DNA from: Akkermansia muciniphila
Lineage (GTDB): Bacteria > Verrucomicrobiota > Verrucomicrobiia > Verrucomicrobiales > Akkermansiaceae
Length of the DNA stretch: 64,000 nucleotides
Assembly: GCA_945890645.1 (NCBI GenBank)
Contig: CAMDCV010000013.1
Coordinates: forward strand, 1 to 64,000
Direction of reading: 5' to 3'
Part shown: positions 14,151 through 40,924 of the stretch, piece after piece
Layout: each line of letters starts with the position of its first letter
Position numbering within the stretch: position 1 is the stretch's first letter
Made by a program: the position numbers and the translations under genes
Notes under the pieces: generated by a model
Databases searched by the model: none
Told to the model about the DNA's origin: nothing
The model's input: only the letters and a program-made list of their open reading frames with translations

Positions 14151-15443
14151 ATGGCCTATCAACACATTACCCCTCCTACTGGCGAAAAAATCACCATTGA
14201 AAATGGAATTCTCTCAGTTCCCAATAATCCCGTGATTCCTTTTATCGAAGGAGATGGCACGGGACGCGATATTTGGCGCTCCTCAGTGCGGGTTTTGGAC
14301 GCTGCTGTGGAAAAAGCCTACAACGGCACACGCAAAATTTCATGGTTTGAAGTTTTTGCCGGGGAGAAATCGTTCAACATGTATAAAGATCAGGTCACCG
14401 ACCTCGGCCAAGCTTGGTTACCCGATGATACTCTCACCGCTTTCCGCGAATTCTTGGTCGGCATCAAAGGACCACTCACCACTCCCGTCGGTGGCGGCAT
14501 CCGTTCCTTGAACGTGGCCCTGCGTCAAATTCTCGACCTCTACGTCTGCTTGCGTCCCGTGATGTATTTCGACGGCGTTCCGAGCCCTGTGAAGCATCCA
14601 GAGTTGGTGGACATGGTAATTTTCCGTGAAAATACGGAAGACATTTATGCGGGTATCGACTTTGAAGCTGGTAGCGAAAAAGCGATGAAGTCGCTGGCGT
14701 TCTTGAAAGAAAATTTTCCTGCGGACTTCAAAAAAATCCGCTTCGGTGAGGAAACTCCTGAATTGGTGGGTGTTGGTTTCAAGCCTGTATCAAAATTGGG
14801 CACGCAACGTTTGGTGCGCGCATCGATTCACTATGCCATTGATCAAAATCGTAAGTCAGTGACTATCGTTCACAAGGGCAACATCATGAAATACACCGAA
14901 GGTGCATTCCGCGATTGGGGCTATGAGTGTGCCAAAGAAGAATTCGGCGCGGTGGAAATCGACGGTGGTCCTTGGTGCGTGATCCCCGAAGGTAAACCCG
15001 GTGCCGGTTTGATCATCAAAGACGCGATCGCTGACATTACTCTGCAACAAGTGCTGACACGTCCGACGGATTTCGACGTCATCGCGACACTCAACTTGAA
15101 TGGCGACTATCTTTCCGATGCACTTGCGGCACAAGTCGGCGGCATCGGCATTGCTCCTGGCGGCAATGCGAACTACATCACAGGTCACGCGATTTTCGAA
15201 GCCACTCACGGCACTGCGCCAAAGTATGCCGACAAAGACCAAGTCAATCCTGGGTCGGTGGTGCTTTCCGGTGAAATGATGTTCCGCTACATGGGCTGGA
15301 ATGAAGCCGCTGATTTGATCATCAAAGGCCTCAATGGCGCGATCGGATCGAAGAAAGTGACCTACGACTTCGCTCGTCTTATGGAGGGAGCGACGCAGGT
15401 CAAATGCTCCGAGTTCGGCGACAACATCATTGCTCATATGTGA
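14151..15443 (+). CDS. icd: NADP-dependent isocitrate dehydrogenase
   Basis: Converts isocitrate to 2-oxoglutarate in the TCA cycle. The 430-residue protein matches the E. coli-type homodimeric enzyme along its length. Visible features: [12 protein letters not shown] near residues 31-42, the substrate loop [10 protein letters not shown] with the serine at 119 that is phosphorylated by AceK in enterobacteria, the [10 protein letters not shown] region, and the coenzyme-binding [17 protein letters not shown] segment, typical of NADP use. It is preceded by the long gap with DnaA-box-like sites and followed by a heptamer repeat array before tadA. Confidence 0.96.
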
Positions 15444-15456
15444 GGGTGAAGTTTCT

Positions 15457-15488
15457 AGTGAGCAGTGAGCAGTGAGCAGTGAGCAGTG
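15457..15488. repeat. Heptamer tandem repeat array AGTGAGC (4 copies plus partial)
   Basis: Four perfect tandem copies of AGTGAGC (15457-15484) and a partial fifth (AGTG), starting 13 bases after the icd stop. The same heptamer in the same plus-strand orientation forms a longer array at 40006-40073. It lies in the icd-tadA intergenic gap and does not enter either gene if tadA starts at 15552. Confidence 0.95.
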
Positions 15489-15508: not shown

Positions 15509-15526
15509 GTCTTATGTCTTATGTCT
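15509..15526. repeat. Second heptamer motif GTCTTAT (2 copies plus partial)
   Basis: GTCTTAT occurs twice in tandem, followed by GTCT, 21 bases beyond the AGTGAGC array and before tadA. It is a different unit of the same length. Confidence 0.7.
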
Positions 15527-35791: not shown

Positions 35792-38008
35792 ATGAAATCG
35801 AAAACATACCTCCTGTCTCTTCCTCTCGTGGCCACCATGGCCATCGTGTCCTGCAGAAAAACACCTCCCGCTCCCGCCACTCCTCCAGGGTCCGCTACAC
35901 CAGCAGCTCCCGGCACCGCTACTCCGGAAGCTCCCGTGACCCCTCCCGTTTCTGTGAACCCCAATGAGCGCGCTACCAAATTGGGCTTCGCGCAAATGCT
36001 TCCTAAAGATACGGAGACTTTGATCCTCGTGCAAAACGGCGCTGATGCGATGAAGCGTTTCCAAGGCAGCAAACTCTATAGTTTCATCAAATCGCAGAAT
36101 CCAGCGGTGGAGGGTTTGGTCGATGGTGAAGATTCCACTGGTCTAAAACCTCTCGATATTCTCGGTCAGGAGTTTTTCCTCGCTACGGGCAAATCGACGG
36201 GCGAACAAACGGGTAACCTCGTGCGTTTCTCAGATCGTCAAAGTTATTTCCAAATCCGCAATGTCGTTAGCATGTTAATCTCTTCTCTCACCGGGGAAGA
36301 GCCCGACCTTTCCATGCTGAGTGAAGAAGGCACAGTCGTCGACTTAATCAAAGACCCTCAAAGCGGATTGGCACTGTTGAAAAAATCCGAAATGCCGCCG
36401 GTCTATCTCGGTTGCAAAACAACTCCGGAAAATCAGGCAAAAGTGCTGGAGACATTTAAGGGGCTCACCGCCAACCTCGCCGCCTTGGGGGCTGCTGTGG
36501 AAGAAGTGAATTTCGAAGTCGATGGCAAATCATTTGCTGGCAGTCAAATCGTGGGCAAAAAACTGGTGGAAGATCTGCAAGCGGATCAGGCCCTGCTGGA
36601 GCGCTTGCAGGAGAGCCTCGATGAGGACACGATCAAAGATTTGTGGGAAGTGGTTGCGCAGAAAAATCTCGTTGTTGTGACTGGTGTCGTAAACGATTAT
36701 GTCGTTTTGTTTGCCGGTAGCCGCAAAGAAGATCTAAAATTCGCGACATCTCCCTCGGAGTCATTTGCGGCCAGCGATGCGCTTGCTTTCGTCGATCCAT
36801 TCCTCGCTAAAAATCCTATCGCTGTGGCCTACAGTGACAAAGGTGTGTTAGACGGTGCCATGCTCAGCAATGGCATCTCGACGATTGCCCAAGGGCTGCG
36901 TGATGCGATCGGCGGCAATGGCAAGGTCGATACCCGCGAGATCGAGGCCTTACTCGATGTCATCGGCGAGCGTGAAAAAGAACTGACGAAGATGGTGGAG
37001 ACAAGCACCTTCGGCGCAGTGGCGATGTTCGACGAGGGCTTCAAGATTGAAACCTTCGGCGGCACCAATTCTCCGAATATCCAAAGCAACGTCACCAACC
37101 GCATGGGCGACCTGGGCAACTCGAAGGACACCGCCATTTTCATGAACTGGACTTCGAATCCTGTCTATGGTATCAAGTTCAACGCATACTTGGAATCGAT
37201 CGTTGAGACCAGCTACGCGGTGGCTAAAAATGTCAGCACTTGGGAAGTAGAAGAAAATGAATCATTCCTTCAATTCCAACAAAGCTTTGCGATGTTTGAG
37301 GAAAACTTTAGCGACGATACCGTCAAGCTGTGGGAAGCCATCAGCCAAGACATGAGCGATGGACTCGGAAATGAGTCGGCAATGGTCGTCGATCTCAATG
37401 GTGAAATGCCACCACTGCCGAACGTGCCGCAAGAATTGGTAAAAGCCGGAAAATTCCCGCGTGTCTCGATGGTCAAGCCAGTGAAAGATCGCACCAAGCT
37501 TGCTTCCTCCTGGGAAAAAATGAACGCCTCCGGTGAAGGCATCATGAAGCAGATCAGTGCCATGATGCAAAGCGATCAGGCAATGCCCAAGCCCATGAGT
37601 TCCAAGGAAAAAAACCTCACCACGTGGTTCTTCTCTGGTCCTTTGTTCACGGATGACTTTGCTCCCTCGGTGACACTCGATGATAAATGGTTTGTGCTCT
37701 CTACTTCCAAAAAGCATGCGGTAGAGTTGGCTCAAAAAGCCGAGACTTCGAACAGTGGGAAAACGGGTGCTTACATGATTGTGAAGTTCGATGCCTTGCG
37801 CGCCTGCGCTGAGCATTGGCTCAAAGCTGTCGATGAAAACAAAGAAGAGATTTTCAAAGACAACGAGTCGGCAGCGGAAGACTTCACTGCGAATCAGAAA
37901 CTCATCAAAGACGGTCTTAACGCCCTCAGTGAGTTAGAGGAAATGACCGTGCATACTCGTGAAGAGTCTGGCAAAGACCGCACGACCTTCCACTTGAAAA
38001 CGCGCTAA
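35792..38008 (+). CDS. Large lipoprotein of unknown function
   Basis: A 738-residue protein whose N-terminus ends in a lipobox (MAIVSC, with Cys at about 21), followed by a proline/alanine/threonine-rich spacer of about 40 residues, as in lipoproteins that reach across the periplasm. The remainder is a soluble alpha/beta body with acidic and lysine-rich surfaces and no motif I recognise (for example FAQMLPKDTETLILVQNGADA and SALSELEEMTVHT). No catalytic signature is visible. Transcription ends at the strong terminator 28 bases after the stop. Confidence 0.75.
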   Translation: MKSKTYLLSLPLVATMAIVSCRKTPPAPATPPGSATPAAPGTATPEAPVTPPVSVNPNERATKLGFAQMLPKDTETLILVQNGADAMKRFQGSKLYSFIKSQNPAVEGLVDGEDSTGLKPLDILGQEFFLATGKSTGEQTGNLVRFSDRQSYFQIRNVVSMLISSLTGEEPDLSMLSEEGTVVDLIKDPQSGLALLKKSEMPPVYLGCKTTPENQAKVLETFKGLTANLAALGAAVEEVNFEVDGKSFAGSQIVGKKLVEDLQADQALLERLQESLDEDTIKDLWEVVAQKNLVVVTGVVNDYVVLFAGSRKEDLKFATSPSESFAASDALAFVDPFLAKNPIAVAYSDKGVLDGAMLSNGISTIAQGLRDAIGGNGKVDTREIEALLDVIGEREKELTKMVETSTFGAVAMFDEGFKIETFGGTNSPNIQSNVTNRMGDLGNSKDTAIFMNWTSNPVYGIKFNAYLESIVETSYAVAKNVSTWEVEENESFLQFQQSFAMFEENFSDDTVKLWEAISQDMSDGLGNESAMVVDLNGEMPPLPNVPQELVKAGKFPRVSMVKPVKDRTKLASSWEKMNASGEGIMKQISAMMQSDQAMPKPMSSKEKNLTTWFFSGPLFTDDFAPSVTLDDKWFVLSTSKKHAVELAQKAETSNSGKTGAYMIVKFDALRACAEHWLKAVDENKEEIFKDNESAAEDFTANQKLIKDGLNALSELEEMTVHTREESGKDRTTFHLKTR

Positions 38009-38093: not shown

Positions 38094-39926
38094 TTACTTC
38101 GCGAAAGGCTCGATCTTCGTCACCTTCCAGTTTTTCTGCTGTTGGTTGTCGTGATCGCGCAGTTGCACTTGATCGCCTACCTTGGCATTGAGGAGTCCAG
38201 CACCGGCTTCGGAAAGGTAGGAGACCCAGCGTTTTTCAGGATCGCTATCCCAAGCACCGAGCACTGAGACTTGATAGGCTTCTCCCTGCTCGTTCTCGAG
38301 GCTCACGACTGTGCCAATGTTGACAGCAGTGCACTCGACACCTTTGAAATCGGTGCCACGCGCGCGAGCGACATCGCGTTCGAGATCACGACGACGGCTG
38401 TTCAGGTATTTCTCCATGTCCTTCGCCGATTTGTATTCGAAGTTTTCCCGGAGGTCGCCGTAAGAGCGGGCAATCTTCACATCTTCGCGGTTTTGCGGGA
38501 TGCGAACCGACACGAGCTCTTGCAGTTCCGCGCGTCGTGCTTCCAGACTGGACCAGGAAACTAACAATTCCTCTTCTTTGTTTTTCTCTTCGCCACTGAC
38601 GAGCTCCTCTGTTTCCGGGCGGGCTTTGATCACGCGGGCCATGAGCGATTTTTTATCGAGCTCATTGAAGACCGGGCATTCCATGAGGCGACGGCCGAAA
38701 TTGCGTGCTTCATTGGCATCCATGAGACTCACGAGATCCGAGAGCAATTCTTTGTCTTCCCCCAGTAGGGACTGCAGACGCTGTGATTTGCGTGGGCCAT
38801 CGGCGATAAAGTCGGACTCCAATTGATTCAAAATGGCAGCACCGACATCCGCACTGAACACGCGGGCTCCGCTGGATTCGCGCTCACGACAAACCCATAT
38901 CAGTGCTTCATGGCCGAGCGAACGGCGCGTGATCGCGCGACGGAGGTAGTCCTCAAGGGCGGGAAGTTCACCGCGCGCTTCGAAAATCTTGGCAATCTCT
39001 CCCAAGCCACGGGCACCGGCTTTTTCTACGACACCCATGAGTTTTTCCACCCATTGACCACCAAACGCGGTGGGGAAAGCGTCGTAGACTTCGCGCTGGC
39101 GAACGGCACTCATGGAAGAAATAGCTTCCGAAACCCGGCTATATTCTGAGCGAATCACTTCTGAGAGACGGATTGCTTCCTCGGCAATTTGAACTTTCGA
39201 AGCAGAGGCCATTTGATCGCGGATCAAAAGTAGTTCGAAAATATTGCCCAGATGCAGTCGGGTGCCGCGTTTGACCTCGGCTTCGATGTCATCGTAGAGA
39301 CGGCGCAGCGTGGCTTCATCGTCAGCAAACAAATGCACTTCCATCGCAATGGCTTCAAGTGTTTTCGCCTTGGTCTTCAGGTCGCGTGCTGCTTCGAAGT
39401 CGGCAACGAGTGCCTGCACGGGAGTCATGTCGCCCGCGCGCAGGATGATCATATCGGTGCGGCGGGCAGGAACGACCACGCGCTTGCTGGTGGACATGAG
39501 TTTCTTGGCGTTATCCCACCATTTTTTGAAATCAGCAGTCGGAATGACTGGGCCGTTGAGTTCTTTTTCGAAAGCATCGAGCGTCATGCTGTTCCCGTGG
39601 CTTTGGAGCACGTGGGCGGCGAGTTCTACTGGATCGGATTTCGCAAGGTGGCGAAGTTCTTCGATCTGTTCGATCTTTTTGGCGCGGAAATCATCGGCTT
39701 GCAGTGGTTCGGTTTTTTGCAAAACAAATTGCAGATCCATTTCCTGAGCGGATTTGTCGGCGAAATCGACGATGAGCTTTTTATCGCGTAGGCTCCATGA
39801 GATCACTTTGCCCGCACCCCAGGATTTGCTCATCAGATAGCAGCCCGGTGCGACTTGAGAAAGCCGCTCTCCGACGGCTGCATTGATTCGACCCGCTTCT
39901 ACCAATTTTGCCACTTCAGGATGCAT
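38094..39926 (-). CDS. greA: GreA-like elongation factor with giant N-terminal extension
   Basis: The last roughly 150 residues of this 610-residue protein are a complete Gre factor: a coiled coil with the acidic tip motif GDLRENFEYKSAKD, whose Asp and Glu activate the RNA polymerase active site to cleave backtracked transcripts, then the FKBP-like domain (VSYLSEAGAGLLNAKVGDQVQL). Ordinary GreA has about 160 residues. The first roughly 450 are mostly helical and begin MHPEVAKLVEAGRIN; chlamydial GreA has a comparable extension. The ATG at 39926 is chosen because the frame upstream runs into the heptamer repeat array. The ribosome site AAGG lies nearby. Confidence 0.88.
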   Translation of the reverse strand: MHPEVAKLVEAGRINAAVGERLSQVAPGCYLMSKSWGAGKVISWSLRDKKLIVDFADKSAQEMDLQFVLQKTEPLQADDFRAKKIEQIEELRHLAKSDPVELAAHVLQSHGNSMTLDAFEKELNGPVIPTADFKKWWDNAKKLMSTSKRVVVPARRTDMIILRAGDMTPVQALVADFEAARDLKTKAKTLEAIAMEVHLFADDEATLRRLYDDIEAEVKRGTRLHLGNIFELLLIRDQMASASKVQIAEEAIRLSEVIRSEYSRVSEAISSMSAVRQREVYDAFPTAFGGQWVEKLMGVVEKAGARGLGEIAKIFEARGELPALEDYLRRAITRRSLGHEALIWVCRERESSGARVFSADVGAAILNQLESDFIADGPRKSQRLQSLLGEDKELLSDLVSLMDANEARNFGRRLMECPVFNELDKKSLMARVIKARPETEELVSGEEKNKEEELLVSWSSLEARRAELQELVSVRIPQNREDVKIARSYGDLRENFEYKSAKDMEKYLNSRRRDLERDVARARGTDFKGVECTAVNIGTVVSLENEQGEAYQVSVLGAWDSDPEKRWVSYLSEAGAGLLNAKVGDQVQLRDHDNQQQKNWKVTKIEPFAK

Positions 39927-40005
39927 ATGCCCGACCTTGGCGACATTTGCGAAAAATTGCAAGGCAACTCTCCGGGAAAAAATCTTCGGGAAGTGATCAG
40001 TTTTT

Positions 40006-40073
40006 AGTGAGCAGTGAGCAGTGAGCAGTGAGCAGTGAGCAGTGAGCAGTGAGCAGTGAGCAGTGAGCAGTGA
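40006..40073. repeat. Heptamer tandem repeat array AGTGAGC (9 copies plus partial)
   Basis: Nine perfect copies of AGTGAGC (40006-40068) and a partial tenth (AGTGA). It lies between the PDZ gene (ending at 40102) and the GreA-like gene (starting at 39926), both leftward. Upstream and downstream flanks resemble those of the shorter array at 15457 (GAAGT before; AGTG and AAAA after). In the reverse sense it translates as LLTAHCS repeats, which creates a false upstream extension of the GreA frame. Confidence 0.97.
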
Positions 40074-40101
40074 AAACCGAGAAAACTTTTGCAAGTGGCT
40101 A

Positions 40102-40917
40102 TTACCGTGAGTTCGAGACAGGCGTGACAGGTTTGATGTCGGGTCGGCTATCGAGATCTGCATCTACTGGCTTTGGAGTGATGCGATCTTGGAGCGTGCT
40201 GTGAAGAGCATTGATGCGCTCATGCCAGACAGTTGGTATTTTTTTCTCGGATTTGGCATCGAATAATCCTTCGAACACGGAATTGCCATTTTGGTCGGTG
40301 ATAGTCAGCCAAGTGCCTTCCGCGCGGCTTTCCATTTCTAGCACAGCACTGCCGTCTTCGAGTCGGGCGATGCGAGTATTGATGTCGAGAGGGCGCGTTG
40401 TTTCGAGTTGCGGCACCATCGTTGGAGTCTTCGCACTTTCGATCGTAGGCCCGGCTGCCACGGAGCGCGCGTTCGGTTCGGCTCCCAGAGTAACCTTGAG
40501 TTTCTTCTCCTCGCCCGCGCGAAATAATGTGAGTTCTACCGAGTCACCAATTTTATGGGTCTCTAACAGGACGGCGAGTTGTGCTTCATTGATGAGCAAT
40601 TGGTCATTCCATTTCCACAGGACGTCGAAGGGCACTACCCCTGCCTGACGAGCGGGGCCGTTTGCGATGACATTGCTGATCACAAAGCCGACACCTTTGG
40701 GGAGTTTGGGCAATTGCGCACGCACCACATCGTCGGCGCGAGCGACTTCGAATCCGACCCATGGTGCGCGACCGGTAGTGGCGACGATCACGGCAGGCTT
40801 ACCAGCCCATTCGGGCGTTGCGGCGGGAGCGGGAGTTTCTTGTGCCGAAAGCAACGCAAGCGAAAAGAAGAGCCCGAGCAAGCTCGTTCCTGCGATTCGT
40901 TGGGAACATAGTTTCAT
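40102..40917 (-). CDS. Secreted PDZ-domain protein
   Basis: A 271-residue precursor with a signal peptide (LLGLFFSLALLSA). A single PDZ domain lies at about 45-140: GVGFVISNVIANGPARQAGV followed by LLETHKIGDSVELTLFRAGEE, the pattern seen in HtrA- and RseP-type PDZ domains. No protease catalytic domain is present. The C-terminal half (about 150-271) is beta-rich and unassigned. It is the third gene of a run after the ECF sigma and the putative anti-sigma, separated from the latter by seven bases. In sigma/anti-sigma systems a PDZ protein could sense unfolded or C-terminal peptides, but that is inference. Confidence 0.85.
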   Translation of the reverse strand: MKLCSQRIAGTSLLGLFFSLALLSAQETPAPAATPEWAGKPAVIVATTGRAPWVGFEVARADDVVRAQLPKLPKGVGFVISNVIANGPARQAGVVPFDVLWKWNDQLLINEAQLAVLLETHKIGDSVELTLFRAGEEKKLKVTLGAEPNARSVAAGPTIESAKTPTMVPQLETTRPLDINTRIARLEDGSAVLEMESRAEGTWLTITDQNGNSVFEGLFDAKSEKKIPTVWHERINALHSTLQDRITPKPVDADLDSRPDIKPVTPVSNSR

Positions 40918-40924
40918 AAACAAA

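What the first reader, a model, noticed from the sequence alone, without database searches (positions are those of the whole stretch)
40006..40073. A second, longer AGTGAGC array 24.5 kb away, with similar flanks
The same heptamer occurs in nine perfect copies between the PDZ and GreA-like genes. Both arrays have GAAGT shortly before them and AGTG plus AAAA after them, which hints at a dispersed repeat family, not independent slippage. Both read AGTGAGC on the plus strand, but the flanking genes run in opposite directions, so the transcript carries AGTGAGC at one site and GCTCACT at the other.
Basis: partly seen in the sequence, partly recalled or inferred. Interest (0 to 1): 0.6.

Follow-up and report, generated by a model that had tools for sequence, protein, structure and literature searches.

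The report
Polar seven-base repeat family at genes
The perfect nine-copy AGTGAGC array is a stretched-out member of a short repeat family scattered between the genes of this freshwater Akkermansiaceae-like bacterium, whose copies sit a few bases from start or stop codons and nearly always point away from the gene, which makes the array ordinary slippage but the family's strict polarity an unsolved and testable puzzle.

Summary
In detail: nine perfect AGTGAGC copies plus AGTG at 40006-40072, and four plus AGTG at 15457-15488. The genome has no other run of three perfect copies, but both arrays are expanded members of a dispersed family built of AGTGNNN units. The usual element is 32 bp (four units plus AGTG), mostly with an A in front. 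I mapped 131 elements in ten genomes of the genus. The 5' end of the AGTG strand faces a gene edge, usually 6-10 bp from a start codon (gene on the other strand) or 0-12 bp from a stop codon (same strand). Counting each orthologous site once, this holds 28:1 for starts and 18:3 for stops. Elements sit in atp, cysJIH and probably groESL operons. AGTGAGC arrays in other phyla lean the same way (22:4), and published heptamers of Xanthomonas, Nostoc and Beggiatoaceae behave alike. In the atpG-atpD gap the two inverted arms are conserved and the loop is not. The shared GAAGT and AGTG-AAAA flanks are the leading and trailing heptads. So 'dispersed family' is right, but copy number is slippage on top of it. 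My mechanism, a G-poor unstructured leader element in a genome nearly without Shine-Dalgarno motifs, is inference.

The parts
39992..40072 (+). Array 2 as a heptad element: AGTGATC AGTTTTT (AGTGAGC)x9 AGTG; the AGTG strand points away from the GreA-like gene
40006..40073 (+). The perfect AGTGAGC tandem array named in the finding (9.7 copies by TRF)
15450..15488 (+). Array 1 as a heptad element: AGTTTCT (AGTGAGC)x4 AGTG, 6 bp after the icd stop codon; the same site carries a canonical 32-bp element in G255 and other versions in G254 and G256
15509..15526 (+). Second heptad array in the same gap (GTCTTAT, 2.6 copies)
38094..39926 (-). GreA-like protein gene (GreA_GreB_N and GreA_GreB at the C-terminal end); the array lies in its upstream region
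   Evidence: Pfam; orthologues in all 10 genomes
40102..40923 (-). PDZ-domain gene upstream, same direction as the GreA-like gene; its stop codon lies about 29 bp from the array
14151..15443 (+). Isocitrate dehydrogenase gene; array 1 follows its stop codon
15555..16079 (+). TadA-like deaminase gene downstream of array 1
39927..40163 (-). Spurious N-terminal extension of the GreA-like ORF, reading SLLTAHC repeats through the array; sisters lack the array, so this is unlikely to be translated

Best explanation
Shown: the array is a member of a dispersed, polar, heptad-built intergenic repeat family whose AGTGAGC unit has expanded by 7-bp slippage. The family unit is about 33 bp, A(AGTGNNN)4AGTG. 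Its AGTG strand starts at a gene edge and runs into the gap. Upstream of a gene the mRNA would therefore carry ...GATCACTGCTCACTNNNCACTNNNCACTT about 6-10 nt before the start codon. Downstream of a gene the mRNA would carry AGTG... within about 12 nt of the stop codon. When both occur in one operon gap they can form a long hairpin. Inferred: copies are kept mainly as untranslated mRNA elements. The start-side form is G-poor and predicted unstructured, and lies where a Shine-Dalgarno sequence would be in a genome that nearly lacks such motifs, so it would keep the start region open for the ribosome or an RNA-binding protein. The paired form would act as an intercistronic stem-loop. Copy number varies by slippage and is probably close to neutral where, as at 40006, the array lies 65 bp from the start codon.
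For: Family, unit order and length: (67 of 131 elements are exactly 32 bp). Polarity, one element per orthologous site: start codon within 12 bp of the 5' end 28, of the 3' end 1; stop codon 18 versus 3. Without gene calls: CAT within 14 nt 5' of the element in 58 of 131, shuffled mean 13, maximum 24. Inverted pairs 9:0 in one order. Same sites used in several species: 71 of 131 elements cluster. atpG-atpD gap: arms 90% and 80% identical across five species, loop 56%, third codon positions about 50-80%; predicted hairpin -30 to -37 kcal/mol; start-side element alone predicted unstructured. Shine-Dalgarno-like motif upstream of 35 of 364 genes without and 0 of 9 with an element. Elements at groEL, ffh, atpA, atpG, atpD, cysI, cysH starts. 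Period 7 gives 27 imperfect arrays in the gaps of 464 kb versus at most 6 for other periods except 14.
Against: No expression data. The unit sequence turns over at some sites (icd gap), and some gaps lack the element or carry different 7- or 9-base arrays instead, which fits relaxed constraint. The stop-side elements are not explained by a translation-start role, and most of those in this genome have no partner arm. Arm conservation could partly be gene conversion among copies. The array at 40006 has no counterpart in the sister gaps, so it has no demonstrated function of its own. Start codons were called by my own hexamer model.
Confidence: 0.5

Rival explanations
1. Neutral or selfish heptad arrays: 7-bp slippage keeps making and growing short arrays, they survive only in gaps, and the elements have no role.
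For: Period 7 is by far the commonest period in gaps and absent from exact tandem runs in coding DNA. Several unrelated heptads occur in the same gaps. The same heptamer recurs in many phyla. Unit sequence and number turn over.
Against: Slippage alone does not predict a common 32-bp length, unit order, orientation relative to gene edges (28:1 and 18:3) or tight spacing to start codons. Baseline strand composition after stop codons is C>G, the opposite of the elements found there. Arms in the atp operon are better conserved than the loop and most third codon positions.
Confidence: 0.33
2. Remnants of a MITE-like mobile element with heptad-built terminal inverted repeats; single elements are one-armed remnants.
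For: Inverted pairs 9:0 in one order; dispersed copies; many sites not shared between close species.
Against: Arm-to-arm spacing varies (9-96 bp) and the interior is not conserved. No transposase link was seen; target duplications were not examined systematically. Tight spacing to start codons is not expected.
Confidence: 0.08
3. Heptads are added to 3' DNA ends at breaks in gaps (telomere-like end healing); the ends are then joined, which leaves the purine-rich strand pointing away from each gene edge.
For: Predicts the observed polarity at both start and stop edges and the 9:0 pair order; gene-distal units are the most uniform; the same polarity in other phyla.
Against: No candidate enzyme: the only clear reverse transcriptase in the genome looks like a group II intron maturase (class judged by eye). 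The tight 6-10 bp spacing to start codons is not predicted. Purely an inference from geometry.
Confidence: 0.06

Closest known systems
GGGAATC (Xanthomonas) and GGGGA(C/T)T (Nostoc) heptamer repeats (PMC4692102)
   Same: Period 7, intergenic, 0-50 bp from start codons on the non-coding strand and 0-50 bp from stop codons on the coding strand; same gaps in related species with varying length and sequence
   Different: Those are G-quadruplex formers; here the unit is AGTGNNN, a 32-bp form with ordered units is common, and elements sit in housekeeping operons of Akkermansiaceae
TAACTGA direct repeats of Beggiatoaceae, Cyanobacteria and Bacteroidetes (PMC4679880)
   Same: [quoted passage not shown] Shine-Dalgarno rare there; some in ribosomal protein operons; GATCACT (TCACTGA) differs from TAACTGA at one base
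   Different: That paper found TCACTGA almost never repeated in its genome (one doublet) and does not mention Verrucomicrobia; here stop-side copies are frequent too
hmw1A 7-bp tandem repeats of Haemophilus influenzae (PMC8262952)
   Same: 7-bp tandem array in an upstream region whose copy number can change by slippage
   Different: Contingency loci upstream of adhesin genes with a shown dose effect; no such effect is known here and the genes are housekeeping genes
Cyanobacterial tandem heptamers (Calothrix; cited in PMC4692102)
   Same: Tandem heptamers in the genome of an unrelated phylum
   Different: Sequence types and gene-edge polarity were not compared here
Borg tandem repeats (PMC9879509)
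   Same: Fast-evolving perfect tandem repeats, part of them in intergenic DNA
   Different: About half lie in ORFs, where unit lengths are multiples of three; archaeal extrachromosomal elements

Membership tests
Intergenic heptameric repeats of the Xanthomonas/Nostoc type | Tandem period of 7 bp in gaps, absent from coding DNA | tested here: met
   27 imperfect period-7 arrays in gaps; 11 exact runs in gaps, 0 in coding DNA
Intergenic heptameric repeats of the Xanthomonas/Nostoc type | Purine-rich strand non-coding upstream of starts, coding downstream of stops, close to the ORF | tested here: met
   28:1 and 18:3 non-redundant; rule as published
Intergenic heptameric repeats of the Xanthomonas/Nostoc type | G-quadruplex-forming unit (GGG or GGGG) | tested here: not met
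   The unit AGTGAGC has no G run, so it is not filed as that specific family
TAACTGA repeats | Unit TAACTGA | tested here: not met
   Units are GCTCACT and GATCACT read toward the start codon
TAACTGA repeats | Placement just upstream of start codons in one orientation | tested here: met
Phase-variation contingency repeat | Copy number changes expression of the adjacent gene | not testable with these tools
   No expression or population data; copy number differs between species at the icd site
MITE | Terminal inverted repeats around a conserved interior | tested here: not met
   variable spacers, interior not conserved
MITE | Target site duplication | not tested
   no systematic comparison of empty and filled sites was made
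Rfam RNA family | Match above gathering score in the window | tested here: not met
   no match

The most novel reading that the evidence does not exclude
One general process, acting in many phyla, lays down seven-base repeats at gene edges with the purine-rich strand always running 5' to 3' away from the gene, whether the edge is a start or a stop codon. AGTGAGC/AGTGATC (Akkermansiaceae), GGGAATC (Xanthomonas), GGGGATT (Nostoc) and TAACTGA (Beggiatoaceae) would be outputs of the same process, possibly telomere-like heptad addition at DNA ends in gaps or a shared selection on untranslated mRNA.
Probability: 0.15. Interest if true: 0.85.

Novelty: new variant of a known kind. Interest (0 to 1): 0.52.

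Why it matters
Heptamers were reported in 2007 to be the most abundant class of longer simple repeats in most repeat-rich genomes studied (Mrazek et al., as cited in PMC4679880), and the explanation offered there, polymerase slippage, is a proposal. Here one repeat family can be followed across ten species at the same gene edges, including the ATP synthase operon, with a strict polarity that also appears in unrelated phyla. This turns a vague abundance into testable predictions about leaders without Shine-Dalgarno motifs, intercistronic hairpins and how tandem repeats arise. It also warns annotators: GCTCACT arrays are open in all three frames and give false N-terminal SLLTAHC extensions.

Tried and rejected
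Chance: rejected. Two unrelated slippage events only: rejected as a full account, since both arrays are in register with a dispersed family. Plasmid-borne element: no match in the plasmid collection. Known structured RNA: no Rfam match. Coding repeat in the GreA-like protein: rejected, because sisters lack it and a 7-bp unit breaks the frame. Reverse-transcriptase-driven heptad addition: the only clear reverse transcriptase looks like a group II intron maturase. Spacer as part of a MITE: interior not conserved. Genome-wide lag identity was only slightly raised at 7, so the windowed test was used instead. Pattern controls given by the genome search are not independent for AGTGNNN, because the reversed pattern also matches the arrays. 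Replication-strand bias was not tested (draft genome).

Full report
OBSERVATION. The window carries nine perfect AGTGAGC units plus AGTG at 40006-40072 and 4.6 units at 15457-15488, both on the + strand; neither is expected by chance. In the 3.82-Mb draft genome these are the only places with three or more perfect copies. Read in register, array 2 is AGTGATC AGTTTTT (AGTGAGC)x9 AGTG (39992-40072) and array 1 is AGTTTCT (AGTGAGC)x4 AGTG (15450-15488). The shared 'GAAGT ... AGTG-AAAA' flanks are therefore outer heptads with the usual leading A, not a longer common flank.

A DISPERSED FAMILY. With up to three mismatches the genome holds many more copies. Most have the form A(AGTGNNN)4AGTG, for example A-AGTGGTG-AGTGTGA-AGTGAGC-AGTGATC-AGTG; 67 of 131 mapped elements are exactly 32 bp without the leading A. 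The gene-proximal unit varies (GTG, ATG, CCG...), while the distal units are mostly AGC and ATC. The family is identified from a sister genome: G255 contig 144 carries the same array at the same coordinates as the contig titled Verrucomicrobiae bacterium RE-23may17-429, and contigs titled Akkermansiaceae match other members.

POLARITY. Genes were called with a hexamer model trained on the window, with elements masked symmetrically. The 5' end of the AGTG strand lies next to a gene edge. One element per orthologous site: a start codon within 12 bp of the 5' end 28 times and of the 3' end once; a stop codon 18 times at the 5' end against 3 at the 3' end, not counting gaps that one element fills completely. 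Distances peak at 7-9 bp for start codons and spread over 0-12 bp for stop codons. A test without gene calls agrees: CAT lies within 14 nt 5' of the element in 58 of 131 cases, against a shuffled mean of 13 and maximum of 24; ATG lies 3' in only 14. When two elements share a gap they are inverted in one order only, AGTG...CACT, 9:0. Both window arrays obey the rule: array 1 follows the icd stop codon on its coding strand, and array 2 lies upstream of the GreA-like gene on its non-coding strand. Array 2 is farther from the start codon (65 bp) than most.

SAME SITES, CHANGING UNITS. 71 of 131 elements fall into clusters sharing flanking genes, nearly all across species. The icd-tadA element is a canonical 32-mer in G255, mixed units in G256, decayed in G254, absent in G253 and (AGTGAGC)x4 here. 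Expansion of one unit by slippage on top of an inherited element is the simplest history. The PDZ-GreA gap has no AGTG array in the sisters, so array 2 was gained or grew in this lineage, or was lost repeatedly. Elements sit at start codons of groEL, ffh, atpA, atpG, atpD, cysI and cysH (gene names from sequence recognition, not a family search). In the atpG-atpD gap of five species the two arms are 90% and 80% identical while the loop is 56% and flanking third codon positions about 50-80%; the predicted hairpin is -30 to -37 kcal/mol and the 46-nt loop is C/A-rich. Other species hold different arrays in the same gaps: heptads in atpA-atpG of G253 and G254 and a nine-base type in cysJ-cysI of G250, G253 and G254.

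UNBIASED CHECK. In 464 kb of this genome, period 7 gave 27 imperfect arrays in gaps against 0-6 for other periods except 14, the harmonic, and 11 exact runs in gaps against 0 in coding DNA. These stretches were partly chosen from contigs known to carry elements, so the count is not a density estimate, but the contrast between periods stands. Of the twelve arrays not of the AGTGA kind, nine are G>C on the strand pointing away from the nearer gene and two C>G. Only 35 of 364 genes without an element have a Shine-Dalgarno-like tetramer upstream, and 0 of 9 with one.

OTHER PHYLA. Leaving out the records titled as Verrucomicrobia (including Akkermansiaceae and Luteolibacter), gene edges lie within 20 bp of the 5' end at 22 loci and of the 3' end at 4 (p = 0.0005; simple longest-ORF gene calls). 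The same rule is published for GGGAATC in Xanthomonas and GGGGATT in Nostoc (PMC4692102), and a matching start-side placement for TAACTGA in Beggiatoaceae (PMC4679880).

MECHANISM. Shown: dispersed family, strict polarity, tight spacing to start codons, same sites across species, conserved paired arms in one operon gap, and 7-bp variation in unit number. Inferred: the start-side copies serve as unstructured G-poor leaders where Shine-Dalgarno sequences are rare, and paired copies form intercistronic stem-loops. Not explained: why lone copies after stop codons keep the polarity against the local base composition. That symmetry between start and stop edges is the strongest point for a DNA-level process, including end-directed addition of heptads, but no enzyme is in sight.

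LIMITS. Gene starts are predicted, not annotated. Arrays at contig ends in several relatives suggest that short-read assemblies break in long arrays, so copy numbers may be lower bounds. The published heptamer families have their own units, and one defining property (quadruplex-forming unit) fails here, so this is filed as a new variant of a known kind.

Noticed in passing
window 15509-15526: Second heptad array GTCTTAT (2.6 copies) in the icd-tadA gap; sisters G254 and G256 keep AAGTCTTA-type heptads with a possible AGACTTTC/GAAAGTCTT stem there.
   Followed up: partly
window 38094-40163 (-): The GCTCACT array is open in all frames, so the GreA-like ORF extends falsely through it (SLLTAHC repeats); expect such false N-termini in databases.
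   Followed up: partly
window 38094-39926 (-): GreA-like protein of 610 aa with GreA_GreB domains only in the last 150 aa; the N-terminal 450 aa has no Pfam match.
   Followed up: no
L399, L400, L406 (cysJ-cysI and cysI-cysH gaps): Another dispersed repeat, roughly AATTCTGAAATTCTGTCAAAA, in the cys operon gaps of several species.
   Followed up: no
L401, L402, L403 (cysJ-cysI gap): A nine-base array (ATCCGACTG type) takes the place of the heptad element at the same site in three species.
   Followed up: no
L297 (G254:C7 about 36100): A 109-bp array of mostly AGTGGTG units 8 bp from a start codon, orthologous to a short two-part element in this genome (L021).
   Followed up: no
L071, L106, L111, L126, L130, L154, L168, L170: AGTGAGC arrays in several loci, among them named Hymenobacter records, share a 3' flank like AGCAAAAGAACGTCA, so they may be part of a longer dispersed repeat there.
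   Followed up: no
L373 (G256:C3:165300-178100): Cluster of eight heptad elements within about 10 kb around many small ORFs, unlike the operon sites.
   Followed up: no
L431 (G000:C58): Apparent group II intron reverse transcriptase 1.3 kb from a heptad element on a short contig; probably coincidence.
   Followed up: partly
window 35883-35934: 24-bp imperfect tandem repeat inside an ORF, coding for a Pro/Ala/Thr-rich N-terminal stretch.
   Followed up: no
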